Assembly: GCA_944332315.1 (NCBI GenBank)
Contig: CALVJT010000050.1
Span: 1-35,362, forward strand
Direction of reading: 5' to 3'
DNA length: 35,362 nucleotides
From: an uncultured Clostridia bacterium
Lineage (GTDB): Bacteria; Bacillota; Clostridia; Christensenellales; UBA1242
This document shows, in pieces, positions 735 through 35,362 of this stretch (position 1 is its first letter; each line of letters starts with the position of its first letter). Under the pieces are notes generated by a model. The model ran no database searches and had not been told where the DNA came from. It was given only the letters and a program-made list of their open reading frames with translations. The position numbers and the translations under genes are program-made.

Positions 735-1914
735 TATCAAATTCTCCTATACTAGCTTTTGTTAAAGGCGATATTGCGCGCAATTTTTTAACAATCACCT
801 CTAATTTTTCTACAACAAAGTCTATATCCTCTTTAGTAATGCTCTTTGAAATTGTAATGCGGATAGTGCCAGCGGCAAGCTCTGGGCTCAATTTTATTGC
901 TTTTAGCACATGTGATGGCTCTACTGCGCCTGTGCTACAAGCCGAACCCACTGATACGGCTATGCCTTCTAGGTCTAGCATCATCATAAGCGCTTCGGCC
1001 TCCACCATACCAAACGATAGGCAGATGCTGTTTGGCAGGCGCTGGAATTTGTGGCCGTTTAGTTTTACATAAGGTATAGTTTCCATAACCTTATCTACAA
1101 AATAATCTCGCATCCTGCGCAACTTTTGGCTGTTGATTATGATATCGCGACACGCTATTTCGCACGCTTTGCCCAAGCCAACTGCCCCTGGGACATTTAC
1201 TGTGCCACCGCGCAAACCGCGCTCCTGATGTCCGCCAAAAATAATTGGGCTTATGTTTACATTGTTTGCTATGTACAGGGCGCCTATGCCTTTTGGCCCA
1301 TTAATTTTGTGCCCCGAAAGCGTGAGCATATCTATGCCCATTTCCTTTACATTTATATTTACTGCGCCAATGGCTTGCGTTGCATCGGTATGGAAAATTA
1401 CCCCCCTTTCCTTAACCGTTTGCGCAATGGCTTTGATATTTTGTATGGTACCAATTTCGTTATTAGCGGACATTATGGAAACCATTAAGGTATCGTTATT
1501 TAAGTTGTGCAAAAGCTCGGCTATACTAACAAGGCCTTCGCTATCTACGGGCAGGTAGGTTACTTTATACCCCATAGATTCCAGTTGTTTGCAAGTTTCA
1601 AGCACGGATGGATGCTCGATTTGCGAGGTTATGATGTGCTTTTTATCGCTATTTTTATAAAAATTTGCAATGCCCAATAGCGCCCAGTTGTTCGATTCGG
1701 TGGCGCCACTTGTAAAATAAATTTCGTTGGGCTTTGCGCCTATTGCGTTTGCAATTCTTTCTCGCGCAGTATCTAGGGCATCATTTGCTTCGCGCCCAAA
1801 GGAGTGCAAAGATGATGAATTGCCGTACATATTGGTAAAGTATGGCATCATTTCGTTGAGAACTTCGCTAGAAACAAAGGTGCTAGCTGCGCTATCTAGA
1901 TAAATTCTATTCAT
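727..1914 (-). CDS. nifS: cysteine desulfurase, NifS/IscS class
   Basis: PLP-dependent enzyme that takes sulfur from cysteine as a persulfide for Fe-S clusters and thiolated cofactors. Visible: the class-V aminotransferase core, His101 in SQIEHPSV, PLP lysine Lys203 in SGHKINGPKG, the FGGHQERGLRGGTVN segment, and the catalytic loop SVGSACSTGA with Cys326. At 395 residues it has the usual length. It is first in a two-gene operon with the IscU-like gene, which overlaps its stop. A good promoter and AGGAGA site precede the ATG. The catalytic residues look intact, in contrast to the degenerate partner, so sulfur delivery is probably still its job. NifS and IscS cannot be told apart from sequence alone. 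Confidence 0.95.
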   Translation of the reverse strand: MNRIYLDSAASTFVSSEVLNEMMPYFTNMYGNSSSLHSFGREANDALDTARERIANAIGAKPNEIYFTSGATESNNWALLGIANFYKNSDKKHIITSQIEHPSVLETCKQLESMGYKVTYLPVDSEGLVSIAELLHNLNNDTLMVSIMSANNEIGTIQNIKAIAQTVKERGVIFHTDATQAIGAVNINVKEMGIDMLTLSGHKINGPKGIGALYIANNVNISPIIFGGHQERGLRGGTVNVPGAVGLGKACEIACRDIIINSQKLRRMRDYFVDKVMETIPYVKLNGHKFQRLPNSICLSFGMVEAEALMMMLDLEGIAVSVGSACSTGAVEPSHVLKAIKLSPELAAGTIRITISKSITKEDIDFVVEKLEVIVKKLRAISPLTKASIGEFDNV

Positions 1915-1935
1915 TATTTTCTCCTAATTACATTA

Positions 1936-1964
1936 ATTTTAGCACTTTAGTTGCAATTTGTCAA
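1936..1964 (-). promoter_or_regulatory. nifS-nifU promoter
   Basis: Consensus TTGACA (1959-1964), a 17-base spacer and TAAAAT (1936-1941), followed by AGGAGA and the nifS ATG. Confidence 0.8.
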
Positions 1965-2021
1965 TAGCAGGCGCTAAAATGTTAAAACTTGAACACTGTT
2001 AGCGGTTGTGACACTACAAAT

Positions 2022-3611
2022 TTACATCAATTTTTGAAACACTTTTGCCGCCGCCACGGCATCGTCCAGTGCGCGGTGCGCCGAAACAAGCTCGATGCCT
2101 AGGTGCGTTACCACGGTTTTTAGTTTGTAGTTTGGCAAGCCCTTTACCTTTTGCCTTGCTAGCAACAAGGTATCTACTTGCTCGTTATCAAAATTAAAGA
2201 GTATTGAGCGCCCGTATTTTTCTAGGAATTTTGCATCAAACTCTATGTTGTATGCCGAAAGCACGCATCCACGCGTAAATTTATAAAAATCTGCCAAAAC
2301 TAGTTCGTAGGATGGCGCGTTTGCTACCATCTCCTCGGTTATGTGCGTGAGTGCGGTGATTTCCTCTGGAATTGGCACAGGTGGCTTTACCAAAGTTTCG
2401 AAAGTTTCGGTTAGTTTGCCGTTGTGTATTTTTACGGCGCCCAATTCTAGTATGTACGAATCATCTACATTTAATCCTGTGGTTTCAAAGTCAAACACCA
2501 CTACATCGTGCGTTTGCAGATATTCCGATACAATCTCGGGCTCGGTATCTAGCAATGTCAACTGCGAAACTTCGATATACTCCTCGGGTTGCACAACTAG
2601 GTATTCATCAAATGGTTTGCGCCATTGAGTGTTATCTTGCGGTTTTTCGTTTAGTTTTACGCGGGCTATGGCGCTTATCTTAAACGAAAAGTTGCCGTTA
2701 TAACTTTCGTAATCGCCCATAATGGCAAGTTGGTCGCCCTCTTTTAGCTGTTGCACTGCTTCCATCGTGTTCTGGTTAGGAAAGTACACGCATCGCATTT
2801 TGCCCCAATAATCCTCTAGCATCAGCGAATACAGCACTCGCTCTTTGGTTTCGTCCTTTTTATCGGGATATCGCCTTTCGTTAAAGAACTTTAGCGTGCC
2901 GGCTATGATGTTTTTTTCGCTGGCGGTTTTTAGTTGGTCTAGGCGGATGGCATAATTTTCGGGTATCTCCCCCACCACGCTATCTAGAAGTTCAAAGCCG
3001 TAGTACTTATCCTCCTCGGGTATAGAAACATCGCGCAAGTAGTTTAGTTCCGTTTGCCTATTGTCGTTTATTTTTAGCACGGTGTTTAGGTCGGCTTCCT
3101 GCAAGGTTGGGTCCAAGGTTATAGATATATTGGCGCAAATTTTATCTTGCAGGTAGTCTATTAAATTATATAAAACATTGTTTTGTTCGAACACATCATA
3201 AAGCGATTTTGGAATTGTTAAGGTGATATTGTAGCAATTGTAATTTTCGTTTTGCTTGTTTTCTATTTGGTCGGGCTCTATTTGTTTTACCGAAATGTTT
3301 TCCTTTTTTATAAAGCTATCCACAAATTTTAGGTGCTCCTCAAAATAGCTTTGCAGAACATCCCATACAACTTCGGTATCCACATAACTTTTTTGGTATT
3401 TTATTGTGATATCGTATTTATTATCTACAAATTCTTTGGCAAGCGCCAAAACTTTATCTTTTTCCTCATCCGTCATTGAGCCAAATTTATCAGGAAAAAG
3501 CAAGTGCAATTCCACTTTTTTTATTTTTCTATCTTTAGGGTATAGGGCTTGTTTTATTTTAAGTTGCCCCAGTTTTTCATCTCTTGCTTTCAAAAAATCA
3601 ATAAAATTCAT
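2022..3611 (-). CDS. PolC-derived 3'-5' exonuclease, no polymerase domain
   Basis: The first ~370 residues match the start of Gram-positive PolC: the N-terminal domain, then an OB-fold region (about 225-330, SEKNIIAGTLKFFNERRYPD onward). The DEDDh exonuclease follows at once: DFETTGL (Asp374, Glu376), NIEFD near 455, and HRALDDA at the end (His512, Asp517). The protein stops there at 529 residues, whereas PolC is about 1,400. PHP, palm, fingers and DNA-binding parts are absent, and nothing downstream before nifS restores them. The PHP half that normally comes before the exonuclease is also gone, so this is a clean domain arrangement rather than a simple frameshift. RBS AAAGGAT precedes the ATG; it starts 21 bases after rseP. 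Inferred: a free proofreading subunit or a half of a split PolC. Confidence 0.85.
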   Translation of the reverse strand: MNFIDFLKARDEKLGQLKIKQALYPKDRKIKKVELHLLFPDKFGSMTDEEKDKVLALAKEFVDNKYDITIKYQKSYVDTEVVWDVLQSYFEEHLKFVDSFIKKENISVKQIEPDQIENKQNENYNCYNITLTIPKSLYDVFEQNNVLYNLIDYLQDKICANISITLDPTLQEADLNTVLKINDNRQTELNYLRDVSIPEEDKYYGFELLDSVVGEIPENYAIRLDQLKTASEKNIIAGTLKFFNERRYPDKKDETKERVLYSLMLEDYWGKMRCVYFPNQNTMEAVQQLKEGDQLAIMGDYESYNGNFSFKISAIARVKLNEKPQDNTQWRKPFDEYLVVQPEEYIEVSQLTLLDTEPEIVSEYLQTHDVVVFDFETTGLNVDDSYILELGAVKIHNGKLTETFETLVKPPVPIPEEITALTHITEEMVANAPSYELVLADFYKFTRGCVLSAYNIEFDAKFLEKYGRSILFNFDNEQVDTLLLARQKVKGLPNYKLKTVVTHLGIELVSAHRALDDAVAAAKVFQKLM

Positions 3612-12636: not shown

Positions 12637-14490
12637 TTATTTTTCTGGTGCAGGTCTAGCGGTTCTATCGAACTGTTTAGACATAAATTCTTTATTAATC
12701 TCGCTAGTTGGTTTACCTTTAATTTCATGCTCTTCGGCAGTTGGAGTGTTGATGCTCAAGCTTGGCATACTTCTGAGTTCCTCGACCAATTCCTCTTTTG
12801 TAAATGTACCGTTGCCTGTCATTTCCTCAATCACTTTGATTATTTCCACTGTAGAACTTGGGCTAGTTTCATCGGTTTTGATGTAGTAGGTGCGGTGCAA
12901 CTCGAACATCTCTTTTAAGAATGCGCTGTGCATTTGTTTTTGGCTTTCCTCTAGTTCTTTTTCGCTCGTAACTTTGGTACTTAGGCCCGTGTTTACAGAA
13001 TAGGTGTTAAAACCTTCCTTTTTCCATGAGGTGATGCGGAAGCCACTACAATTTTTATTCTTGAAGTTTTCGGCGCCAAAGCTTTCGAGGTTACGCGTAT
13101 AGACATATGCTTTTTGCAAATCGTCAAATTCTTTATAGATAGATACATTTGGGCTATCCAAATCTAATTGCACATAGTATTTTGAATTTACGACAGTGCC
13201 ATCAATACTTTCCTTATCCAAATAGCGTTCGGCATTAGAAACAGATTTGTTAAAATCGGAGTAGGCATCTGCAATATTTTTCATTCTATCGGCATACTCT
13301 GGTTTTTCTTTTACTTCCTTATAGAACCCCTCGTAGTCACCCAAAGATACGCCTTTACGCACTGGCAAAGGCATTTTTTCGACGCTCTCATTTTGCAATT
13401 TATCTAAATATTTTTCCTTTGTCATTAAAGGTGAGCGGACAAAGCGAGGTTGCAGACTTTCCATAACATCCTTTTTAGGGTTATAGGCAACAAGTTCATC
13501 CTCGGTGTTGGCTGAACCAATACTTTCGGCAACTAGCCTTAGCCTTGCAAAGATGTTCATATCGCCGGTAGACCTTTCGACATATGCTGGCATACCGGTA
13601 GCCTCTGGGCTATCGTAAGAACTTTCGTACTCGTGCATAAAGTGCTTTGCATAAAATCTTTTTAGCGCCCCTTTAGATGCTCCGTAGGCATAGATACCTG
13701 TTCTACCTACAGCGCCAATACCCAAAGCGGTTGCTCCTGCCACCTTTTTAGCCCCGCGCACAGTTTTTTTCCTTGCACTGCGGTATGCCATATTATCCTT
13801 AAAATCTTGCACACTGGTGCCAACTTTACCCTCGATATTATGATAATCTACATAATCCTCGTGCAGTTCGTCATAAACTCTGCGGTATTTTTCGAACTTT
13901 TTCATACGGTGGTCGTATATTCTTGAGCCTGGGGCAGTAAAACGGCCTAAGCCAGTTTTAGCCTCTGCTTCGGCATACACTGCATCATCGGCATTAAGTT
14001 CGTGCTTTTCCACATCATATGTGGCATAAAGTTTTGCAGCAAGACGCTTAGTTTTTGTTGCGTACATATCGTGCACACGATTAAACTTTGCTAAGTTTTT
14101 ATCGCGCTTTTTGGTTAGGCTAGCGTATTTTCTATCGGAATAATCTTTATCCTCTAGTTTAGCTTGAATTTTTGCTGCTTTTTGTACACTGCGCTCTGCT
14201 TTATAGAGTTTATTATCTTTTCTTAACAAAGCGTACTGTGCGGCAAGCGGAACACTTGTTAAAACCGCGCCACTCACTAGTGTGGTACTTACGGATAGTA
14301 GCGTAAAGTATGTAGGTGCAGCAATCAACGGCCCTATTGCTGGCACTAGCATTGCTAGAGCACCACCTACGCCTGCTACGGCGCCCACTGTTATGTAGGA
14401 AGCTGTTCTCTTTTTAAGTGATAAATCGTTGCGTGCTGCTCTAAAATAATCTTTGTTTTCTCTTTCCACTATATAAGTTCTTAAATTCAT
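12637..14490 (-). CDS. unrecognised 617-residue membrane-anchored protein
   Basis: I do not recognise a family. The N-terminus is basic (about 1-30), then two adjacent hydrophobic segments (about 32-58 and 60-86, rich in Gly/Ala/Val). A long charged region rich in Lys, Arg, Tyr and Ala follows (about 90-245), likely helical or coiled. A short Gly/Ala segment (KKVAGATALGIGAVGRTGIY, ~250-270) could touch a membrane. The rest is soluble and mixed, ending in a Pro/Lys/Glu-rich tail. There are no obvious catalytic motifs, cysteine clusters or nucleotide-binding loops. RBS AAAGGGG and a near-consensus promoter suggest strong expression. Single-gene unit with its own terminator. A cytoplasmic scaffold tied to the membrane is one possibility only. 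Confidence 0.85.
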   Translation of the reverse strand: MNLRTYIVERENKDYFRAARNDLSLKKRTASYITVGAVAGVGGALAMLVPAIGPLIAAPTYFTLLSVSTTLVSGAVLTSVPLAAQYALLRKDNKLYKAERSVQKAAKIQAKLEDKDYSDRKYASLTKKRDKNLAKFNRVHDMYATKTKRLAAKLYATYDVEKHELNADDAVYAEAEAKTGLGRFTAPGSRIYDHRMKKFEKYRRVYDELHEDYVDYHNIEGKVGTSVQDFKDNMAYRSARKKTVRGAKKVAGATALGIGAVGRTGIYAYGASKGALKRFYAKHFMHEYESSYDSPEATGMPAYVERSTGDMNIFARLRLVAESIGSANTEDELVAYNPKKDVMESLQPRFVRSPLMTKEKYLDKLQNESVEKMPLPVRKGVSLGDYEGFYKEVKEKPEYADRMKNIADAYSDFNKSVSNAERYLDKESIDGTVVNSKYYVQLDLDSPNVSIYKEFDDLQKAYVYTRNLESFGAENFKNKNCSGFRITSWKKEGFNTYSVNTGLSTKVTSEKELEESQKQMHSAFLKEMFELHRTYYIKTDETSPSSTVEIIKVIEEMTGNGTFTKEELVEELRSMPSLSINTPTAEEHEIKGKPTSEINKEFMSKQFDRTARPAPEK

Positions 14491-22363: not shown

Positions 22364-22394
22364 AAACTGCAAGAAAAGAGCTTGCAGTTTTTTA
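22364..22394 (+). terminator. mazF terminator
   Basis: AAAACTGCAAG, loop AAAAGAG, CTTGCAGTTTTTT. The next bases are the GGTTCT end of a MITE-like repeat. Confidence 0.9.
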
Positions 22395-22463
22395 GGTTCT
22401 ATAATATTATGCGGTTAATTAGCAGAAAGAGCTTAGCAAAAACAACTCTTTAACCCCCGAACC
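22395..22463 (+). repeat. short MITE-like repeat, copy F (69 bp)
   Basis: Ends GGTTCTATAATATTATGCGG and TTTAACCCCCGAACC; interior TTAGCAGAAAGAGCTTAGC. It looks like an internally deleted form abutting the mazF terminator. Confidence 0.7.
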
Positions 22464-22561: not shown

Positions 22562-23386
22562 TTATAGAGTTGGCACTTGCTGATTGTTTATTCTTGGCGC
22601 GCTTATTTTTATTAAAACTTTACTTGGGGCGGGCACAATTTCTTTGCTAAAATAATTATTAAGATAGTAAAACAAATCGGTTTGTTCAAAATTATTAAAT
22701 TTTGATTTATTCATAGGTATGCCTGCAACTAATGCTTTTTGGCAGACTGCTATGTTTGTTTTTTTATCTACAAGCCACTTTATAGGCTCTACTTTTACAA
22801 AATAATCTTGCCCATCCACAACTAAAACATCACCTAAATTTACTGTGCTAGAGTTTGCTCTATTATAAAGGTGTGCTGTTACTTTGATAAACTTATTTCC
22901 ATTGTACTCTAACTCGGGCAACTCTTGGGGCTCAAATGCGCGCTCGCCCGCTTTTGCCCCGTTTATTGTGTAAAATTTACCCGTATAGTTTGCTAAATTT
23001 ATGTCTATATTCTGCAAATTTACAATTGTTTGCGGATATTCGCCTGCAATACACACAAAACACTTATCGTTTTCGCCTACAATTTTGCAAGTATGAAAAA
23101 GTTTTTGCAGTTCGCTAAACTCCATTGCTGGCCTTATGGACATATATCTTGCGCGCATAGGGCTTATTCCCATACCCTCGTTATGATATACTGCTGTAAC
23201 AAATACTTGATTGTAGGTAGATGACCACCACATTGTTGTAAAATTGCTATCATCTTTATTAAAATTTCCGCCCAAAAGCACTGCAAAATCGGTTGGTTGA
23301 CACTTTTTATCGGCTTTTAGCATTGGCAACTCTGCTTTTATGGATGTATCCCAAATTTCATCCTCGGTCAATAATCTTATACTCAT
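22562..23386 (-). CDS. hypothetical protein with DUF6273-like segments
   Basis: 274 residues, no signal peptide or membrane span. The N-terminal half has a WWSSTYNQVFVTAV stretch followed by MRARYMSIRPAMEF; this W-W ... R-P-A pattern is typical of C-type-lectin/FGE-like folds such as DUF6273. The C-terminal half has FVKVEPIKWLVDKKTNIAV and FNNFEQTDLFYYLNNYFS, which resemble the 'PIKW-V' and 'S-I-R-WLN' parts of the same group, in the opposite order. Function unknown; such domains occur in surface, phage-tail and sensor proteins. It has a good promoter, with a 94-bp tandem repeat just upstream. Family assignment is tentative. Confidence 0.7.
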   Translation of the reverse strand: MSIRLLTEDEIWDTSIKAELPMLKADKKCQPTDFAVLLGGNFNKDDSNFTTMWWSSTYNQVFVTAVYHNEGMGISPMRARYMSIRPAMEFSELQKLFHTCKIVGENDKCFVCIAGEYPQTIVNLQNIDINLANYTGKFYTINGAKAGERAFEPQELPELEYNGNKFIKVTAHLYNRANSSTVNLGDVLVVDGQDYFVKVEPIKWLVDKKTNIAVCQKALVAGIPMNKSKFNNFEQTDLFYYLNNYFSKEIVPAPSKVLIKISAPRINNQQVPTL

Positions 23387-23433: not shown

Positions 23434-23448
23434 TACAAAACGCAAAGT

Positions 23449-23660
23449 GTGGTGGCACACTGCCATGGTCTTAGTTAGTACTAGGCAAACTATTGTATAT
23501 CTATATACTTTGTACTAAGCCAACTTCCGTACTTTCTATATTGCGGTGGCGCACTGCCGTGGTCTTAGTTAGTACTAAGCAAATTATGCCTCATTAATAA
23601 ACTTTGTACTAAGCCAACTTCCGTATTTTCTATAGTGTGGTGGCGCACTGCCGTGGTTGT
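23449..23660. repeat. 94-bp tandem repeat, 2.3 units
   Basis: GGTGGC starts at 23451, 23545 and 23639, an exact 94-base period. Units share GGCGCACTGCCGTGGTCTTA, GTTAGTACTA and CTTTGTACTAAGCC; a middle stretch of about 20 bases varies. Each unit holds the near-palindrome CTTAGTTAGTACTAAG and the GCACT-CCGT core. It stands 16 bases upstream of a -35 box. Confidence 0.85.
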
Positions 23661-23753: not shown

Positions 23754-23788
23754 AAAAGCACCTAAAGAGTTGCCTCTTTGGTGCTTAA
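23754..23788 (-). terminator. terminator of the surface-protein/VirB4 operon
   Basis: AAGCACC-AAAGAG, loop, CTCTTT-AGGTGCTTTT on minus, about 150 bases past the VirB4 stop. Confidence 0.85.
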
Positions 23789-23801
23789 AAATATCTTTAT
23801 T

Positions 23802-23903
23802 GGTTCTATAATATTACTTGGGTGTTAGCAAAAATTTAGCAAAAAGAGTTTAGTATAAGTTTGAATCTATAACTCACTATACCCCCATTAATAATAAAGA
23901 ATC
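23802..23903 (+). repeat. MITE-like ~100-bp repeat, copy D
   Basis: GGTTCTATAATATTACTTGG to CCCCCATTAATAATAAAGAA; interior TTTAGCAAAAAGAGTTTAG. It lies between the VirB4 stop and its terminator. Confidence 0.85.
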
Positions 23904-23937: not shown

Positions 23938-26637
23938 CTATTTGCGGACATTGCTGAATATTTCCTGCACTGTGCGCAGAGGTGAAATTTTTAGTGTGGT
24001 ACGCGCAAGCGGACCAGAGATAAAGAAGCATTCACCTATATTTGCAGTTACTATACTATCTTGCTCATCCTCATTAATCTCGCCGGCGTTCCTATACAAT
24101 GCAACAAGGTCGGAGATATCGTTAGGTGCAAGGCTAAATATCATAGAATACTGCGATGCGTTGATAACTGCGGTTGATTGACGCGCAATTTCGGGCGAGC
24201 CGACAAAGTCCTTTATGTTTTGCGTGATGATGATTTGCATACCACCGTACTTTCTAATTCTCTTTGCCATTTGCGCCATAAAGTCTAGCGCCATAGGATA
24301 TTTAGGGTTAATAAATGTATGCGCCTCGTCGACTGCAATTACTATTTTACGGTTGCTATCGTTTAGAGTGTTGAAATCTTTGTTACGGATAATCTCGTTT
24401 TCTAGGTACTTAAACACCAGCAACATTTGTGCGTTTGTTGTTATGGTGTTTCGGTTAGAAATGAGTGATAGGAACGAGAATGTTACAAAGTTTTCGGCTG
24501 TTTCGATAGATGTTGGGCCGTTCCACAGTTTACTATTACGCCCACCGGTTGCGAATTTTTTTACATAGTTTTCGATTATTTGCAAGTTGTGCTTTTGATA
24601 CTCATCAGTTTCGGTATCTATCCTTTCTAGCACAAGTTTATAAAGGTCATCGAAAATAGGAAAATCCTCGGGCTTTAGTTTGGAAACATCCGTGCGCATT
24701 GTAATGCCCTTTGTTGCGTAGGTATCGGCAACAAGCGAGTTTAGCAACTCAAAGGCATCGCTTGGCATACCCTCCATAATTATACGGAAAAATTGCTCCA
24801 AAAATTGTAGGTGCAAGGCGTAGGAATCACCTTCGGCACGCTTCTTTTCGGCGCGCTGAGCCATTTCCTCCTCGGTCAAATCCTCGTACTTATCGCCATA
24901 TTCATCCTCATCCTCCTCTAGTGAGGCGTTGATATGGAATGGGTTTAGTATACCCGAACGACTGGAGCCGACATCAATAAGCTTACCTTTTAGATTTTTA
25001 ACCAAAGGTGCGTACTCATCCTCGGGGTCGAGGATAAATATACGCGCGTTATCGGCCGCAAGATTTGTCAAGAGCGTTTTAGTTGCAAATGACTTACCCG
25101 AACCTGACTTACCTACAACCATAACATTACTGTTTACGCGGACACTATCGCGCTTATAAAAATCTACAAACACTGGCAAGGAATTGTAGCCTAGGTAGAA
25201 CCCGCCCTCGTCCTGAAGTGCGTTGCTGATGAATGGGAACATACCTGCAATAGATGCAGTTTGAATACCACGCATTGCATCTTTTACATTATCTATTCTT
25301 GAGATATTGTTGCTGACAAATTCATCCACTTGCCTACCAAACATTTCGTTGTACTTAAAGCCGTTTTGTTTTAGTAGGGCTCTAACTTCCTTTTTAGCAT
25401 TTTCCTCGCAGACGATATGGATATTTACATTATATAAATCCTCGTTAGCGTTTTTGATATCGGTTAAAAGTTGGTGCAGTGTTTCGATATGCGTTTGATA
25501 TTCAATTTGCTTTGAACTACGCAAGGAGTACTGCGATTGCGATTCCATTTCGATAAGGGCACGGTCGATTTGCTTTTCGGCTTGGAACCTTGGTATTGGT
25601 TTTATGTTTACAACCACTTTTGTTCTATCTAGGTTAAAGAACGGATAACCCCAACCGTTTTCAACCGTGATAGGATAATCGGTTATAACAAAACTGCGAT
25701 ATTCGGTGCCATCGATTTTAGTTTTAGCCATTTTGAACTCGACAACATCGGGTGTAGCCCACTGTACTTGTTCTGCCAAAGGCACTACATCCACATCGCG
25801 CTGGTCAAAATCTTTACCGTAGTTAGCTTTTAGGAATACGGCAAGTTCCTCCTCCTGTAGCAAATGGCTAGACATTGGCGTTGCGCTTTGCCTTAGGCTT
25901 GACATCATACCATCTACTGTGATATCAAGCTGTTCTCTATCTTTATCGTAAACAACTAAATAGTAGGCATCCTTAAAAATTCTATCCGCAGTGTTAATGG
26001 TGCGCAGATAATCTAGGCGCGCTTCGAAAATTTCTGAGCGCACTTCGACTTCCTCGGCGGACATTTCGCCCTCGCTTTGCAGTTCCATAAGGCTATCGTA
26101 CTTGCGTTCCTCGGATTGCATATACCTATCAAACACCATTGCTTTGTTAATTTTTACAATGCTTGCTTGCTGGCTTTGTTGCAGACGCTTGAGCGCATCC
26201 CCTACGGTATTTATTAGCATATTTTGCTTATAATCGTTAAGCATAAAGAACTCTACGGGCTCAATTTCGATTACTTGCGCAAAATACTCGCGCTGATAGC
26301 TTATAAAGCGCCCTTCTACTATGGCATCGTACGGGATGAGTTCCGACATAGGCGTATGCTTTTTTTGCATATGTTTGCTATACTTTTTCTTGAAAGCCAA
26401 AAAGCGGAACAGCAAGCCTATACTTACATATAGGCGCACGCCATCTGCAACTGGTATCCAAAAACTGATGCACACTGCAAGCCACGCGACTGCTATATAC
26501 CAATTATATGGCAGGTTGCTTTGCGCAAACAAAATGAACCCTGCTATTGCTATTACTGCCAAAATAAGGTCACCGAGCGTCACGTTCTTAAAGAACTGCA
26601 TCTTTACTTTGGTTTTTCTTGGAATAAATCTTTGCAT
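23938..26637 (-). CDS. PrgI-like/VirB4 fusion, type IV secretion ATPase
   Basis: VirB4-family ATPases power assembly and transport in conjugation and type IV secretion. A basic start is followed by two membrane segments (about 22-40 and 45-78), like PrgI proteins encoded before virB4 in Gram-positive elements; here they are fused. A VirB4 N-terminal domain follows (about 95-480), then the motor domain: Walker A GKSGSGKSFATK near 509-520, DPEDEYAPLVKNLKG, Walker B IAVDEAHTFINP near 768, and IIITQNIKDFVGSPEIARQS. An acidic insert (EEDEDEYGDKYEDLTEEE) near 575 is unusual. 899 residues. It begins 29 bases after the Ig-like surface protein gene, so the two form an operon. No relaxase, VirD4, VirB6 or cell-wall hydrolase lies in the window. 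Confidence 0.9.
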   Translation of the reverse strand: MQRFIPRKTKVKMQFFKNVTLGDLILAVIAIAGFILFAQSNLPYNWYIAVAWLAVCISFWIPVADGVRLYVSIGLLFRFLAFKKKYSKHMQKKHTPMSELIPYDAIVEGRFISYQREYFAQVIEIEPVEFFMLNDYKQNMLINTVGDALKRLQQSQQASIVKINKAMVFDRYMQSEERKYDSLMELQSEGEMSAEEVEVRSEIFEARLDYLRTINTADRIFKDAYYLVVYDKDREQLDITVDGMMSSLRQSATPMSSHLLQEEELAVFLKANYGKDFDQRDVDVVPLAEQVQWATPDVVEFKMAKTKIDGTEYRSFVITDYPITVENGWGYPFFNLDRTKVVVNIKPIPRFQAEKQIDRALIEMESQSQYSLRSSKQIEYQTHIETLHQLLTDIKNANEDLYNVNIHIVCEENAKKEVRALLKQNGFKYNEMFGRQVDEFVSNNISRIDNVKDAMRGIQTASIAGMFPFISNALQDEGGFYLGYNSLPVFVDFYKRDSVRVNSNVMVVGKSGSGKSFATKTLLTNLAADNARIFILDPEDEYAPLVKNLKGKLIDVGSSRSGILNPFHINASLEEDEDEYGDKYEDLTEEEMAQRAEKKRAEGDSYALHLQFLEQFFRIIMEGMPSDAFELLNSLVADTYATKGITMRTDVSKLKPEDFPIFDDLYKLVLERIDTETDEYQKHNLQIIENYVKKFATGGRNSKLWNGPTSIETAENFVTFSFLSLISNRNTITTNAQMLLVFKYLENEIIRNKDFNTLNDSNRKIVIAVDEAHTFINPKYPMALDFMAQMAKRIRKYGGMQIIITQNIKDFVGSPEIARQSTAVINASQYSMIFSLAPNDISDLVALYRNAGEINEDEQDSIVTANIGECFFISGPLARTTLKISPLRTVQEIFSNVRK

Positions 26638-26666
26638 ATTTTTCCTTTGCTCCTAATGCTAGATTA

Positions 26667-29600
26667 TTAGATAAAGTTGATTATATATTGTTGCCTTATA
26701 TTTAAGCCATCGCTGGTTGTGAGCACAACATTTATATGTGCCTCGACAGTATCAAGCGGTTGCCCCGAGAATGTTAAAACTTGCACTCCGTTGCTTTCGG
26801 TTAAACGCACTTGATTTGCAGATTCGCTTGCAACCTCGTAGCTTAAAAATGCAGAGGTATTTGATACATTTATATCTGAACCTGTAGAACTTGCGTTTCT
26901 AAATACCAATGAGAACAGAGAATTTTCTCGCAAATTATAGCCTCCGCCCTGCGCATCGATATTTAGCGAATCTACTGATGCGGTGGTTGAATACTCGCCA
27001 TCATCGTTAGCCTTCCACTGTATGCTGTTGCTTGCAACGCTTGTTAAATTACCTTTAATGCAAATTCTATCTGTGATAGGATTTGTGGCGTTTTGATAGG
27101 TTGCGGTTAGCACGATGTACGCCTCTTGGTCTAGTTCGTGAATTTGAATTCTATATACATTTTGGTTATCGACTGTAGCAGAAATTACGCTTGCTACATT
27201 CGACCTTGCGCCCTGTGCATCCACTACGCTATAGTTATAGGATGTATTTGATATTGTAAGAGCAGTTGGTAGCAAGTAGTCCTCGCCTTCCACCAAATCT
27301 TGTAGCACTTGCACTGTGCCCGCTTCAAATGTAGGTTGAAGCAACAAAATTTCGGTTAACACGCCAGAGGTGCTGACTGTGCCCCAATTTGATGTTATTC
27401 CTGTTACTTCGTTTACGCCATTTTGCATTTCGTAGGTGTAGTTGAGTTGTCCAGCAATTTCGTAGTAATCGATGTCATTTACTGTATCGGTAGGCGCTGT
27501 GTTTACATTTAGGCTTATGCTTTCTATAGGCACCTCGATTATATATAGGTGCAAGGTAAACACAGTTTCGTACCCATCACTAGATACATTAAAGTTGCCG
27601 GTGTAGTACTCTATTCTTATGTCTCTAGAGATGTACTCGCTTATATTGTAGGTATGGACATCCAAATTCAAATAGTAGTTTTGGGCATTATTGCCTAGGT
27701 CCTGCTCCTCTAAAGTTGCGCTAACTGTATCGGTATCGTTATTCACCACTCTTAGCCAAGTGCCACTTTCGGAACTGTTGTTGAACGCATCGAACAGCGC
27801 TCCGCTAGAGTTTGCAAACAGTGAAATTTGATGCCTTGATACACTGCTTACTGCTAGTATTTTAGAGTTTGTACCGTTTTGTGTGCTACCTATTAGCTCG
27901 GTTTGCCCTGTGCTTTCGATATTTATATAAGTTTCGAGGTTAGTCATTTGCTCGGTCACTCTAAATGTGACTTCATCACTGCTAGCAATAGCCACAAATG
28001 TTGGCACATTGGTGGTTATAACATCGCCGTTTTCATCTAACACATTGCCCGAACTATCAAAGCGCATAACATCGCCGTTTTGGTCTATAGGGTTGCCGTG
28101 CATATCGGTTTTTACAACATAGGCGCGTAGCAGAATGTTTCCGCGGGCAAGCGCTTGCACCACGCTTGGGTCACGCAGATTTAGTCCGCGTCCGCGTACC
28201 TCTCTGCCAAAGCCCGAAAAATAGGTGGAGCCCAATTGTATTATTTCCTCGCCCTGCTCGTTTGTATATCTACCCTCGGAGTACTGCGAGTTGTTGTGAT
28301 AGGTGCCTTTTGCAAACACTTTTACCAAAAAGTACGAGGTTTGATTGCCACCATCGGTGGCTACAATTTCGACATTTTCAGTCCAATCCCAAGTATTGTT
28401 TACCGAAGTTATAACATCACCGTTTTTGGTTATGCTCATCTCTACCAAATCGTTGTGCGACATATTAGGGTTTGTTTTGCTTGTGCCTTCAAACTCTAAG
28501 CTCTCGATATCGTTGCGCAGTATCAAAAAGTTATTTAGTTCGGCGGATACATTAGGGTATGATGCCAATGTTACATACACCACAAGCCCTTGCATTGGCT
28601 CCTGCTCTACTGTAAACTCCCACTCGTTTGTATCGTAGTTTTTACTGATTATTAAGCCTTTAGAATCTGTTGTAAGGACGATTTGATTAAGTAGATTTGC
28701 AAAATATTCGTCATTGCCGTTGGAGGCGCTCATTGTTATTCCTAGTTCCTCGGCAGTAAATGAAGTGGTTTGGAATAGTGGCAACTCGATTGAGCGATTA
28801 TCTACATCGATAGCATCAAGCGTTATTTCCTCTACCTTAATTACAAAACTTTTGGTTATGTAGCGCCCTTGCAAAAGCTCTGGCGGAATGTAGCCTATAT
28901 CATCCCACTCTGGTATGCCTGATTGGTAGTTATTGATAAAATCGATATCGTCATAAGTGCGCAGGCACCTTGCGTACACAGTAACTTCGCCAGGATTTTG
29001 CGCAACAATTTCTCCAGTTTGAGAAATACTTATAACATTACTAGGGGAAGTTGCATCTAAATAATACTCCACTACTTTAGAGTTGCGCCTAAAATTATTA
29101 AATTCAGATTTTTGGTCTATATGGCTAGGGTCTTGTGAATTCGTAGGCAAAAACTGCGTGCTAATGTGTCCAATTTCATCCTCGTACAGCATAAATTTAG
29201 AAACTTCGTTTTCAACCACGGTTGACATATCGCTACTAGTTATTGCAAGGTCGGTTACAGGTATATCCACAAACACTACAAGCGGTCTGGACATATAAAG
29301 CCCTTCATCGTTCTGCACATTTATATAGCAGTACCCGCCCCTATTTACTCCATTATCATCTTTAGTGACAATTATTTGGATAGGTTCGCCGATATTGCCC
29401 TCTGATTGCACAGTGGCAACACTTGGGTCGGATGAAGTTAGGTAGATTTTTGTTTCGGTGACTGGATTTTCATCGATAACATTGCCATCCTCATCGGTAA
29501 TTGGGGTTGTGCTACCGCGCACTACAAAAGTGGAATCTACCGCAATATTGGGGTTATCACTTTCGTAAATGCCGTTTATGCGCAAAACTGGATAGCCGTT

Positions 29601-29783
29601 TATAATTTCGATATTTTCATTTTCGTTTACATCGTCTATATATAAATCCTCGGCATAGACAGTTTTGGGTGTGTAGTACCCTAGGGCAAAAGCCATTATT
29701 ATTGATATCCATATAATTGCTATTGCTGCACAAAAGCAGTATGCAACAACTGTCATTGCACTTAGTAATGTTGACTTTTTCAT
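26667..29783 (-). CDS. large anchored surface protein with BIG2/Ig-like domains
   Basis: 1,038 residues. The N-terminus has a short basic start and one hydrophobic segment (about 8-36), a signal anchor that would leave the rest outside. The remainder is Ser/Thr/Asn/Val-rich beta-sheet sequence. Bacterial Ig-like (BIG2) signatures are visible: SSDPSVATVQSEGNIG near 113-128 and ISISQTGEIVAQNPGEVTVY near 250; weaker repeats continue to the end. There is no LPXTG sorting signal or C-terminal membrane span. It is the first gene of the operon with the VirB4-type ATPase, under a strong promoter. An adhesion or envelope-spanning role alongside the ATPase is inferred; no precise family is recognised. 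Confidence 0.88.
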   Translation of the reverse strand: MKKSTLLSAMTVVAYCFCAAIAIIWISIIMAFALGYYTPKTVYAEDLYIDDVNENENIEIINGYPVLRINGIYESDNPNIAVDSTFVVRGSTTPITDEDGNVIDENPVTETKIYLTSSDPSVATVQSEGNIGEPIQIIVTKDDNGVNRGGYCYINVQNDEGLYMSRPLVVFVDIPVTDLAITSSDMSTVVENEVSKFMLYEDEIGHISTQFLPTNSQDPSHIDQKSEFNNFRRNSKVVEYYLDATSPSNVISISQTGEIVAQNPGEVTVYARCLRTYDDIDFINNYQSGIPEWDDIGYIPPELLQGRYITKSFVIKVEEITLDAIDVDNRSIELPLFQTTSFTAEELGITMSASNGNDEYFANLLNQIVLTTDSKGLIISKNYDTNEWEFTVEQEPMQGLVVYVTLASYPNVSAELNNFLILRNDIESLEFEGTSKTNPNMSHNDLVEMSITKNGDVITSVNNTWDWTENVEIVATDGGNQTSYFLVKVFAKGTYHNNSQYSEGRYTNEQGEEIIQLGSTYFSGFGREVRGRGLNLRDPSVVQALARGNILLRAYVVKTDMHGNPIDQNGDVMRFDSSGNVLDENGDVITTNVPTFVAIASSDEVTFRVTEQMTNLETYINIESTGQTELIGSTQNGTNSKILAVSSVSRHQISLFANSSGALFDAFNNSSESGTWLRVVNNDTDTVSATLEEQDLGNNAQNYYLNLDVHTYNISEYISRDIRIEYYTGNFNVSSDGYETVFTLHLYIIEVPIESISLNVNTAPTDTVNDIDYYEIAGQLNYTYEMQNGVNEVTGITSNWGTVSTSGVLTEILLLQPTFEAGTVQVLQDLVEGEDYLLPTALTISNTSYNYSVVDAQGARSNVASVISATVDNQNVYRIQIHELDQEAYIVLTATYQNATNPITDRICIKGNLTSVASNSIQWKANDDGEYSTTASVDSLNIDAQGGGYNLRENSLFSLVFRNASSTGSDINVSNTSAFLSYEVASESANQVRLTESNGVQVLTFSGQPLDTVEAHINVVLTTSDGLNIRQQYIINFI

Positions 29784-29845
29784 CTTATCCCCTTTTTGCG
29801 TATAGTATTTGCAAAAAATTTCTTTTATTTACAAAATTCAACATA

Positions 29846-29874
29846 ATTATACCAATATTAACATTTTAAGTCAA
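29846..29874 (-). promoter_or_regulatory. promoter of the surface-protein/VirB4 operon
   Basis: TTGACT (29869-29874), 17 bases, TATAAT (29846-29851). Confidence 0.8.
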
Positions 29875-30052
29875 ACAATTTATGTGTTTTATGATGAATT
29901 ATAGCCGATTTTCTATTATATCATTCTTTATGGAATTTTCCATCTTTTTATCTAGAGGATTAAAATAAAAAAGCTAAACAGCATTGCATAGTTTAAGCGT
30001 TGGTAACTCAACTCTTATTTAGCAAAAAAATTCCTTATTACTAAATTTTTTC

Positions 30053-30090
30053 GGTTCTATAATATTCGTGGGGGGTAGCCAAAATTAAAA
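30053..30090 (+). repeat. truncated MITE-like repeat, copy E
   Basis: The left end is intact (GGTTCTATAATATTCGTGGG, then GGGTAGCCAAAATT); the right end is missing. It lies about 50 bases from the ppa terminator. The rest of 29,875-30,138 shows no gene. Confidence 0.6.
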
Positions 30091-30238: not shown

Positions 30239-30769
30239 TTATTTGTTATACTTTTCGTTATATCTAGCAATTGCTTCTTTTATAATTTTTTTAGCATCGT
30301 TTTCATCGCCAATACTTGTAATTTCGCAGTGTTTATTATCAAGGTCCTTGTACCTTTGAAAGAAGTGTACCATTTCGTCATAGACATGCTTTGGTAGGTC
30401 GTCCTTTTTAGTCATATGATTATAAAATTTATCTTTTTTAGGTACGGCGATAATTTTCTCATCATTTTCGCCCGAATCTACCATATTTAGCACTGCTATT
30501 GGTGTGCAATTTACTAGGCTCATACTTTGGATATTTTCCGAGCAGATAACAAGCACATCTAGTGGGTCGCCATCCTCGCTTAGTGTGCGCGGTATAAAGC
30601 CGTAGTTTGCTGGATACATCATAGAGGCTGACATAACTCTATCTAGCGCTAACATACCAGTTTCTTTATCAAGTTCGTATTTTGCTTTACTGCCTTTTGA
30701 AATTTCTATAACCGCAGTAAACTCATCCTCTTTTACTCTATCTTCACTTAAATCGTGCCAAATGTTCAT
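30239..30769 (-). CDS. ppa: inorganic pyrophosphatase, family I
   Basis: Soluble enzyme that splits pyrophosphate and drives biosynthetic reactions. The family I metal-binding signature DGDPLDVLV is present (Asp66, Asp68, Asp71), as are SKAKYELDKETGML, DRVMSASMMYPANYGFIPRT, and the later IIAVPKKDKFYNH and HFFQRYKDLD. 176 residues, normal. RBS AGGAG. Single-gene unit with its own terminator. Many clostridia use family II enzymes or membrane pumps instead; here the soluble family I form is clear. Confidence 0.96.
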   Translation of the reverse strand: MNIWHDLSEDRVKEDEFTAVIEISKGSKAKYELDKETGMLALDRVMSASMMYPANYGFIPRTLSEDGDPLDVLVICSENIQSMSLVNCTPIAVLNMVDSGENDEKIIAVPKKDKFYNHMTKKDDLPKHVYDEMVHFFQRYKDLDNKHCEITSIGDENDAKKIIKEAIARYNEKYNK

Positions 30770-34368: not shown

Positions 34369-35362
34369 TTATATAATTATGCCTACATTTATGTTTGGCA
34401 CGCTTATTGAATAATCAATTTGTGTTGTTTTTATTTCGTTTAAGTAAACTTTGCGCCCATTTTGCGTTGTGTTAGTTGTGCTTGCCGATACATTGCCATA
34501 GTAGTTTAACACAAATTGTACATACACCAAGCTTACATCGGGTTCTAGTACTAATGTTGTGGCTATTGTTTGCGCATTCGGCAATATTTGTTGCACTAAT
34601 TTATTATCGGCAAAGATATATATCATATAGTTTTGGTTATTGTAGTTTGTACAGTTTAGAGTTAAATCTAGATTAACTCCTTCTACCCAATTGGCTTTAA
34701 GAAAAATGCCATATTGTATATCACTACCCATAGAGGCAAGTTGGTCATCTAAACCTACTGTATCTGAAACCCATCCAATAACTCCTTCAATATAAAGAAC
34801 ATTTGTTAAAGCAATAGATAAGTTTACCATTGGTATCAAATCAAAATCTTTTATTCGATTAGCACTACCAACGATTGCTAATTGCTCATTTATATAGTCT
34901 ACTATTGGTTGTAAATTAAAATCGCCACTATGCCACCCACTTTCTATTGCATAAAAATATTGATAATTACTATCATAACCAGTAGAACTGCTTGGCGAAC
35001 ACTGAGTTTTAACAATTGTACCTGACTTTTCAGTTTTATCACTAGCATCTGTTGAACTATTATATTGATAATAACTTATTGGAATAGACAACTCCACACC
35101 ACTTAAGGCTTGCATATTTTCGCCTAAATCAAATAGTACTCCATGGGTGGCACCAACTTCACCGACGCCCTCAACAATATCCAAAGGCTTATTTTGATAA
35201 TTTGGCAACAACACTGTAAACACCATTAAATATATCACAAAAAGCCACGATAGTATTAGTACCGCAGTTATTAGTGGGCTGTGCTTTGTTTGCGATTTTG
35301 CATAGTTTGTATTATTTAGTTTTATATCAAATTTTGTGTTCCTTTTTATTGGGTTAGAACTA
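34369..35362 (-). CDS. partial membrane-anchored extracytoplasmic protein
   Basis: The frame is open to the right edge, so the true start lies outside. A GTG at 35238 falls inside the hydrophobic segment (SPLITAVLILSWLFVIYLMV) and is unlikely to be the start. Before the segment comes a polar, Lys-containing stretch (KLNNTNYAKSQTKHS), so this is a cytoplasmic tail and single membrane anchor. The ~285 residues outside are Asn/Thr/Ser/Ile-rich with beta-type patterns, two helical stretches (QPIVDYINEQLAIVG) and no recognised motif. Its style resembles the 1,038-residue surface protein. Family unknown. Confidence 0.8.
   Translation of the reverse strand, partial: SSNPIKRNTKFDIKLNNTNYAKSQTKHSPLITAVLILSWLFVIYLMVFTVLLPNYQNKPLDIVEGVGEVGATHGVLFDLGENMQALSGVELSIPISYYQYNSSTDASDKTEKSGTIVKTQCSPSSSTGYDSNYQYFYAIESGWHSGDFNLQPIVDYINEQLAIVGSANRIKDFDLIPMVNLSIALTNVLYIEGVIGWVSDTVGLDDQLASMGSDIQYGIFLKANWVEGVNLDLTLNCTNYNNQNYMIYIFADNKLVQQILPNAQTIATTLVLEPDVSLVYVQFVLNYYGNVSASTTNTTQNGRKVYLNEIKTTQIDYSISVPNINVGIII

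What the first reader, a model, noticed from the sequence alone, without database searches (positions are those of the whole stretch)
23938..29783. Two-gene operon: Ig-like surface protein plus PrgI-VirB4 fusion ATPase
A 1,038-residue anchored BIG2-type protein and a VirB4 ATPase carrying its own PrgI-like membrane segments share a strong promoter and a terminator. There is no relaxase, coupling protein or integrase nearby, and the neighbours are housekeeping genes. This suggests a chromosomal secretion or adhesion machine derived from conjugation parts rather than an integrated element.
Basis: partly seen in the sequence, partly recalled or inferred. Interest (0 to 1): 0.7.

Follow-up and report, generated by a model that had tools for sequence, protein, structure and literature searches.

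The report
Resident T4SS in tiny-genome gut bacteria
The two genes belong to a type IV secretion machine that an entire family of uncultured, genome-reduced gut bacteria inherits like a core gene but without the DNA-nicking enzyme needed for plasmid-style transfer, so it probably serves contact with neighbouring cells rather than spreading a mobile element.

Summary
In detail: a 1,038-aa Ig-like secreted or anchored protein and an 899-aa VirB4 ATPase form a two-gene operon with a good promoter and a hairpin terminator. The pair is not a stand-alone machine. The same genome carries the VirD4 coupling protein, a VirB6-like channel protein and a lipoprotein at other chromosomal sites (nrdR, leuS). 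The pilin gene falls in an assembly gap here but is present in same-genus genomes. VirB4 occurs in 262 of 271 genomes and 42 of 42 genera of the family (one member is Ca. Caccopulliclostridium, GTDB family UBA1242). VirB4 and VirD4 follow the RpoB tree. No relaxase was found in the genus with two relaxase models, and none near the resident loci elsewhere; separate ICE copies of the same T4SS type occur in a few members and branch outside the resident clade. So a mycoplasma-ICE-type conjugation machine was apparently domesticated once, at the base of a reduced-genome, reportedly partner-dependent Bacillota family. This parallels the relaxase-poor T4SS of Patescibacteria, and no paper in the held library reports it. 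Delivery of protein into, or exchange with, a neighbouring cell is inferred. The Ig-like partner was found only in the window's genus.

The parts
26667..29783 (-). Large Ig-like extracellular protein (1,038 aa), one N-terminal TM or signal; first gene of the operon
   Evidence: ORF; orthologues in 5/5 genus genomes, 49-66% identical, always just upstream of virB4; Big_2 in 3/5 orthologues; all-beta model, Ig/cadherin-like matches, low confidence; not found beside virB4 in other genera
23938..26637 (-). virB4: T4SS ATPase of the mycoplasma-ICE (Mbov_0397) type
   Evidence: NF045975 572 bits over 9-894; P-loop PF19044; 262/271 family genomes; pN 0.05-0.09 with synonymous sites saturated
26353..26637 (-). 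N-terminal two-TM segment (residues 1-95), VirB3/PrgI-like by topology
   Evidence: TMs near residues 19 and 46; PF12666 on the G006 orthologue E 9e-5, below cut-off, and no separate PrgI in 24/24 family genomes; hhalign weak
25090..25113 (-). Walker A of VirB4 (GKSGSGKS, residues 509-516)
   Evidence: G509, G512, G514, K515, S516 invariant in 27 relatives
24325..24330 (-). Walker B acidic pair DE (residues 770-771)
   Evidence: E771 invariant, D770 nearly invariant
29846..29874 (-). Promoter-like site TTGACT-17-TATAAT with TG
   Evidence: 11 of 12 matches, best in the region
29789..29797 (-). Ribosome-binding-like AAAAAGGGG before the Ig-like gene
   Evidence: sequence read
26643..26648 (-). 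Ribosome-binding-like AAAGGA before virB4, inside the 29-nt gap
   Evidence: sequence read
23756..23786 (-). Intrinsic terminator hairpin about 150 nt after virB4
   Evidence: fold -17.6 kcal/mol, z -4.6, 3' arm ends in TTTTA
30239..30769 (-). Upstream flank: inorganic pyrophosphatase (ppa), chromosomal housekeeping
   Evidence: PF00719 3e-59; same neighbour in G001, G003, G004
22562..23386 (-). Downstream ORF of unknown function (274 aa), separated from virB4 by the terminator and hairpin repeats
   Evidence: no Pfam/NCBIfam match; homologue only in G001

Best explanation
Shown: virB4 of the window is one part of a resident type IV secretion system kept by nearly the whole family. Its other parts (VirD4, VirB6-like protein, a lipoprotein; the T4SS_pilin in same-genus genomes) lie at one or two other chromosomal sites. 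It descends from an ICE-type mycoplasma-like conjugation module and has been inherited vertically since the family's ancestor, without a linked relaxase or integrase. Inferred mechanism: VirB4 powers assembly of a VirB3/VirB6-type membrane channel and a pilin structure; VirD4 still selects substrates, but in the absence of a relaxase these are most likely proteins passed to a cell in contact, or molecules exchanged with it. Surface lipoproteins and, in the window's genus, the co-transcribed Ig-like protein would make or stabilise contact. This would suit a bacterium that cannot make most of its own metabolites.
For: VirB4 in 262/271 family genomes, 184/190 of good quality, 42/42 genera; VirB6 24/24, VirD4 24/24, pilin 23/24. 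VirB4 recovers 12 of 13 strongly supported RpoB splits, VirD4 10 of 13; 1,000 relabellings never shared more than 3 splits, Mantel p<=0.0005. Resident clade 100/99, nested in a ladder of ICE-borne relatives. No MobL relaxase in 18/24 family genomes incl. all 5 of the genus; none over the PF03432 cut-off in 24; no MobL or matching integrase within the flanks of 80 named virB4 loci. ICE copies with integrase exist separately in G015 (also MobL) and G007. Component identities: NF045973, NF045848/NF045889, NF045849 all over cut-off. VirB4 under strong purifying selection. Lipoprotein just before virB6 in about 21 of 27 loci. UBA1242 predicted partner-dependent (PMC12306168).
Against: No substrate, effector or contact phenotype is shown; the partner-cell function rests on analogy. 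Relaxases of the MOB_V, Q, T and C classes were not searched, so conjugation by an unlinked relaxase is not excluded. Six of 24 family genomes do hold a MobL relaxase on other elements, which the resident machine could mobilise in trans. No VirB1 hydrolase or VirB8 was identified. Own pilin gene not seen (assembly gap). MAGs may be misbinned, though the congruent trees speak against it.
Confidence: 0.62

Rival explanations
1. A resident conjugation helper: the machine is kept because it transfers DNA (chromosomal fragments or small mobilisable elements that bring their own relaxase), as in mycoplasma chromosomal transfer.
For: All parts match mycoplasma ICE or conjugation families; VirD4 is retained in 24/24; MobL elements occur in 6/24 family genomes.
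Against: 18/24 family genomes incl. the whole window genus have no MobL relaxase and none passes the PF03432 cut-off; a helper that benefits others would not be expected to be kept in 97% of genomes of a family with reduced genomes.
Confidence: 0.17
2. DNA or nutrient uptake: the machine imports DNA or other molecules from neighbours, as the Helicobacter ComB T4SS or archaeal Ced do for DNA, feeding a nucleotide-auxotrophic cell.
For: UBA1242 lack nucleotide and most other biosynthesis and standard transporters (PMC12306168); the Patescibacteria T4SS has been suggested as an uptake conduit (PMC12857230).
Against: ComB-type uptake lacks VirD4 (own knowledge) whereas VirD4 is in 24/24 genomes here; com genes were not examined.
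Confidence: 0.14
3. An ordinary recent ICE or a decaying ICE remnant in this genome.
For: VirB4 belongs to an ICE-named family; genuine ICE copies exist in G015 and G007.
Against: Family-wide presence, RpoB-congruent trees, purifying selection, housekeeping flanks conserved in the genus, no integrase or relaxase near 80 homologous loci, no convincing flanking att-like pair.
Confidence: 0.03
4. The Ig-like protein and VirB4 are neighbours by operon reshuffling, and the Ig-like protein is an unrelated S-layer protein or adhesin (this can be true alongside the best explanation of VirB4).
For: The pairing is restricted to one genus; elsewhere VirB6 or other genes precede virB4; the Ig-like protein evolves much faster than VirB4.
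Against: Pair kept in 5/5 genus genomes with gaps of at most 38 nt, one promoter and one terminator; the VirB6-linked lipoprotein evolves equally fast.
Confidence: 0.4

Closest known systems
Mycoplasma/Spiroplasma ICE T4SS (Mbov_0395 pilin-like, Mbov_0396 TM, Mbov_0397 VirB4, VirD4; ICEA of M. agalactiae)
   Same: All component families match, same order pilin - VirB6 - VirB4; an essential surface lipoprotein in ICEA, CDS14 (PMC6030558); no VirB1 or VirB8 recognised in mycoplasma ICEs (PMC12857230)
   Different: Here resident, family-wide, vertically inherited, split over chromosomal sites, no linked transposase/integrase or relaxase
T4SS of Patescibacteria (Saccharibacteria, Southlakia epibionticum)
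   Same: Lineage-wide chromosomal T4SS of monoderm (MPF-FATA) origin, mostly without relaxase, with T4SS_pilin, VirD4 often away from virB4, in reduced-genome bacteria (PMC12102498); essential for epibiotic growth in one species (PMC12857230)
   Different: Different phylum; VirB4 here matches the mycoplasma-ICE subfamily and has an N-terminal TM pair (a possible VirB3 fusion, which that study did not find in Patescibacteria); function here untested; no joint tree made
Rickettsiales rvh T4SS
   Same: Conserved, dispersed T4SS in reduced genomes (abstract of PMC2653234; dispersal stated in PMC12102498)
   Different: Gram-negative envelope parts and intracellular eukaryotic hosts (own knowledge)
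ICE copies in the same family (G015:C7; G007:C28)
   Same: Same T4SS component families, 45-47% VirB4 identity to the window's
   Different: Linked integrase (both) and MobL relaxase (G015); sister to each other and outside the resident clade
Streptococcus suis 89K T4SS
   Same: Reported Gram-positive protein-secreting T4SS (PMC12857230)
   Different: Pathogenicity island with VirB1/VirB8, not lineage-wide

Membership tests
Mbov_0397-type (mycoplasma ICE) T4SS machinery | VirB4 of NF045975 | tested here: inconclusive
   572.5 bits full length, cut-off 590: just below; G007 ICE copy 572.2
Mbov_0397-type (mycoplasma ICE) T4SS machinery | VirB6-like protein of NF045848/NF045889 | tested here: met
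   137 and 91 bits, cut-offs 90 and 70
Mbov_0397-type (mycoplasma ICE) T4SS machinery | Pilin-like NF045849 / PF18895 | tested here: met
   same-genus G004 protein 45 bits (cut-off 40) and PF18895 28.6 (cut-off 26.6); own copy not found, contigs end at that place
Mbov_0397-type (mycoplasma ICE) T4SS machinery | VirD4 coupling protein | tested here: met
   NF045973 284 bits, cut-off 250; PF02534 1.7e-48
Integrative and conjugative element | Relaxase linked to the T4SS | tested here: not met
   no MobL in the genus, none near resident loci; PF03432 none over cut-off in the family; other MOB classes not searched
Integrative and conjugative element | Integrase and att repeats flanking | tested here: not met
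   window flanks are housekeeping genes; no integrase like the family's ICE ones in 80 loci; only short or intergenic repeats
Integrative and conjugative element | Patchy distribution, trees unlike the host's | tested here: not met
   262/271 genomes; RpoB-congruent
Patescibacteria-type domesticated T4SS (as a kind, not as a clade) | Lineage-wide, chromosomal, mostly relaxase-free, pilin present | tested here: met
Patescibacteria-type domesticated T4SS (as a kind, not as a clade) | Essential for growth on another bacterium | not testable with these tools
   uncultured organisms
Effector-translocating T4SS | Identified protein substrates | not tested
   large soluble ORFs next to virB4 in several genera are candidates only
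PrgI-VirB4 (VirB3-VirB4) fusion | PrgI domain PF12666 over cut-off in the N-terminus | tested here: inconclusive
   only the G006 orthologue, 22.7 bits (cut-off 27); window protein no hit; hhalign E 0.02, probability 2%
BIG2 surface proteins | Big_2 PF02368 | tested here: inconclusive
   3 of 5 orthologues, best 8.4e-5, window copy none

The most novel reading that the evidence does not exclude
UBA1242 are bacteria that live on other cells, and this T4SS is their indispensable contact and exchange organelle: a second, independent domestication of a monoderm conjugation machine for an epibiotic life, in Bacillota, with genus-specific Ig-like proteins or lipoproteins as adhesins that choose the partner.
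Probability: 0.33. Interest if true: 0.92.

Novelty: new variant of a known kind. Interest (0 to 1): 0.74.

Why it matters
A 2025 review calls it a long-standing question whether Gram-positive T4SSs have become dedicated effector translocators, and names Patescibacteria as the newcomer whose T4SS is essential for its bearer (PMC12857230). Here a second, unrelated, reduced-genome lineage, common in animal guts, appears to keep a relaxase-less monoderm T4SS as a core gene set. That gives the 'partner-dependent' prediction for UBA1242 (PMC12306168) a concrete candidate machine, makes the convergence testable by comparison, and supplies natural controls: true ICE copies of the same T4SS type in the same family.

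Tried and rejected
The second AAA_10 hit in the genome (C21) is FtsK, not a second VirB4. The 791-aa ORF beside virB6 looked T4SS-linked but is LeuRS. A structure model of the lipoprotein upstream of virB6 failed (pLDDT 35), so a VirB8-like fold could not be tested. The Ig-like model is weak (pLDDT 53) and its PDB matches have whole-chain TM-scores near 0.1; used only as 'all-beta, tandem domains'. dN/dS ratios could mostly not be computed because synonymous sites are saturated. The VirB6 tree is long-branched and only partly congruent (6 of 12 strong RpoB splits). Plasmid and phage collections gave only distant VirB4s (<60% identity), best full-length ones from Spiroplasma at about 26%.
Full report
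WHAT IS IN THE WINDOW. The contig (G000:C50, 35,362 nt, identical with the window) carries a two-gene operon on the minus strand: an Ig-like protein of 1,038 aa (26667-29783) followed after 29 nt by virB4, 899 aa (23938-26637). The best promoter-like site of the region (TTGACT-17-TATAAT, TG) lies about 63 nt before the first gene and a strong hairpin terminator about 150 nt after virB4 (z -4.6). The flanks are ppa and an NYN-domain gene, then, by reading of the sequence, a DNA glycosylase and recN on one side, a MazF-like gene and cysS on the other. In same-genus genomes the same neighbours recur.

WHAT VIRB4 IS. NCBIfam places it next to the mycoplasma ICE ATPase family Mbov_0397 (572 bits over residues 9-894; cut-off 590). 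The catalytic motifs are invariant among 27 relatives. Two TM segments precede the ATPase. I looked for PrgI there: the window protein has no PF12666 hit, the G006 orthologue has one below cut-off (E 9e-5), no separate PrgI was found in any of 24 family genomes while order-level ICEs of another type have one, and a profile comparison is weak. A VirB3-like fusion is therefore plausible by topology and by the absence of a separate gene, not proven.

THE REST OF THE MACHINE IS ELSEWHERE IN THE GENOME. A VirD4 coupling protein lies at C73 beside nrdR; a VirB6-like protein with about 8 TMs and an upstream lipoprotein lie at C17 beside leuS. In the same-genus genome G002 these are one locus, leuS - virB6 - lipoprotein - pilin | virD4 - nrdR-like gene (L168); in the window's genome both contigs end between lipoprotein and virD4, which would explain the missing pilin. 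NCBIfam names these parts with mycoplasma ICE families or CD1115 VirD4, over cut-off. Pfam T4SS_pilin is over cut-off for the G004 pilin. In many other genera all parts are together: virD4 divergent from pilin - lipoprotein - virB6 - virB4. A lipobox protein precedes virB6 in 19 of 27 loci by a strict pattern and in 2 more by eye.

IT IS A CORE, VERTICALLY INHERITED SYSTEM. Among 24 family genomes VirB4, VirB6 and VirD4 were found in all and the pilin in 23. In the wider family search VirB4 was found in 262 of 271 genomes, 184 of 190 of good quality, and in all 42 genera. VirB4 reproduces 12 of 13 strongly supported RpoB splits and VirD4 10 of 13; 1,000 random relabellings never shared more than 3 splits; distance correlations, one genome per genus, are 0.81 and 0.90. 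Within the genus synonymous sites are saturated while VirB4 non-synonymous difference is 5-9%.

IT IS NOT A MOBILE ELEMENT NOW. PF03432 relaxase: none over cut-off in 24 family genomes. The ICE relatives use MobL (PF18555); a MobL profile finds none in the window's genus and none in 18 of 24 family genomes; the other six carry it on other contigs or, in G013, 94 kb from virB4. In 80 named loci with up to 10 kb on each side no MobL and no integrase of the ICE type was seen. True ICEs of the same T4SS type do exist in the family: G015:C7 (MobL, integrase, VirD4, pilin, VirB6, VirB4) and G007:C28 (integrase, pilin, VirB6, VirB4; contig starts inside the element). They are each other's sister although their hosts are not, and stand outside the resident clade. 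In a tree with order-level ICEs and Spiroplasma/Mycoplasma the resident copies form one clade (100/99) at the tip of a ladder of ICE-borne lineages. Simplest reading: one domestication at the base of the family.

WHO CARRIES IT. UBA1242 genomes are reduced, lack amino-acid, nucleotide and lipid synthesis and standard transporters, and are predicted to be obligate symbionts or parasites (PMC12306168); that paper, which I read in full, does not mention a T4SS. Searches for UBA1242, Christensenellales or Onthoplasma with T4SS found no report in the held library; subscription papers and preprints are not held.

THE IG-LIKE PROTEIN. It is found beside virB4 in 5 of 5 genus genomes with gaps of at most 38 nt and in no other surveyed virB4 locus. 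Big_2 is detected in 3 of 5 orthologues; the model is weak but all-beta with tandem Ig/cadherin-like matches. It evolves as fast as the virB6-linked lipoprotein and much faster than virB4, as expected of a surface part. Its role as an adhesin or channel extension is inference from co-transcription.

MECHANISM. Shown: parts list, conservation of the ATPase motifs, dispersal, vertical descent, lack of linked relaxase. Inferred: VirB4 with its TM pair and VirB6 form the membrane channel, the pilin a surface structure, VirD4 selects substrate; without relaxase, protein or metabolite exchange with a contacted cell is the likeliest use. VirD4 retention argues for export rather than ComB-like uptake. 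Rivals are DNA mobilisation in trans and uptake. The nearest published parallel is Patescibacteria: T4SS of monoderm origin, mostly relaxase-free, essential for epibiotic growth in one species (PMC12102498, PMC12857230). In mycoplasma ICE a surface lipoprotein is essential and can act from the neighbouring cell (PMC6030558), which suits the conserved lipoprotein here.

LIMITS. The genomes are metagenome-assembled; other MOB classes, com genes and hydrolases were not searched; only one marker (RpoB) was used for the species tree; no tree with Patescibacteria sequences was made; the function is untested.

Noticed in passing
L231 (G006:C17) 1065-3179: Three ORFs beside ribosomal protein genes, each with two fused T4SS_pilin-like units: a pilin array, reminiscent of the six pilin genes of Saccharibacteria; G009 and G017 also have several pilin hits.
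   Followed up: partly
L167 3401-5464; L168 15004-19041; L169 17039-19999; L173 3-2150: Giant secreted protein beside nrdR/virD4 in the window's genus; the G002 copy has a papain-like protease domain and an MBG domain. Unrelated or distant giant proteins (1,700-2,000 aa) also stand next to virD4 in G015, G022, G007, G021.
   Followed up: partly
window 23448-23655: Two 94-nt tandem intergenic repeats with small hairpins (GTGGCGCACTGCC) plus a third partial copy, between virB4 and the next gene.
   Followed up: no
window 22389-22426, 23796-23833, 30047-30084: Intergenic repeat around GGTTCTATAATATT with copies on both sides of the operon; looks like a dispersed repeat rather than an att site.
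   Followed up: no
window 12637-14490: 617-aa protein of no known family with a hydrophobic N-terminal part, next to the pyruvate:ferredoxin oxidoreductase gene; homologue in G001 at the matching place.
   Followed up: no
L043, L039, L044, L045, L047, L048 downstream of virB4: Large soluble proteins (600-1,700 aa) without detectable relatives in the other loci directly follow virB4, then in several genera a conserved 76-84 aa protein (c5); candidate substrates and partner.
   Followed up: partly
window 34369-35361: End of a further, probably secreted protein at the window edge, no Pfam match over cut-off.
   Followed up: no
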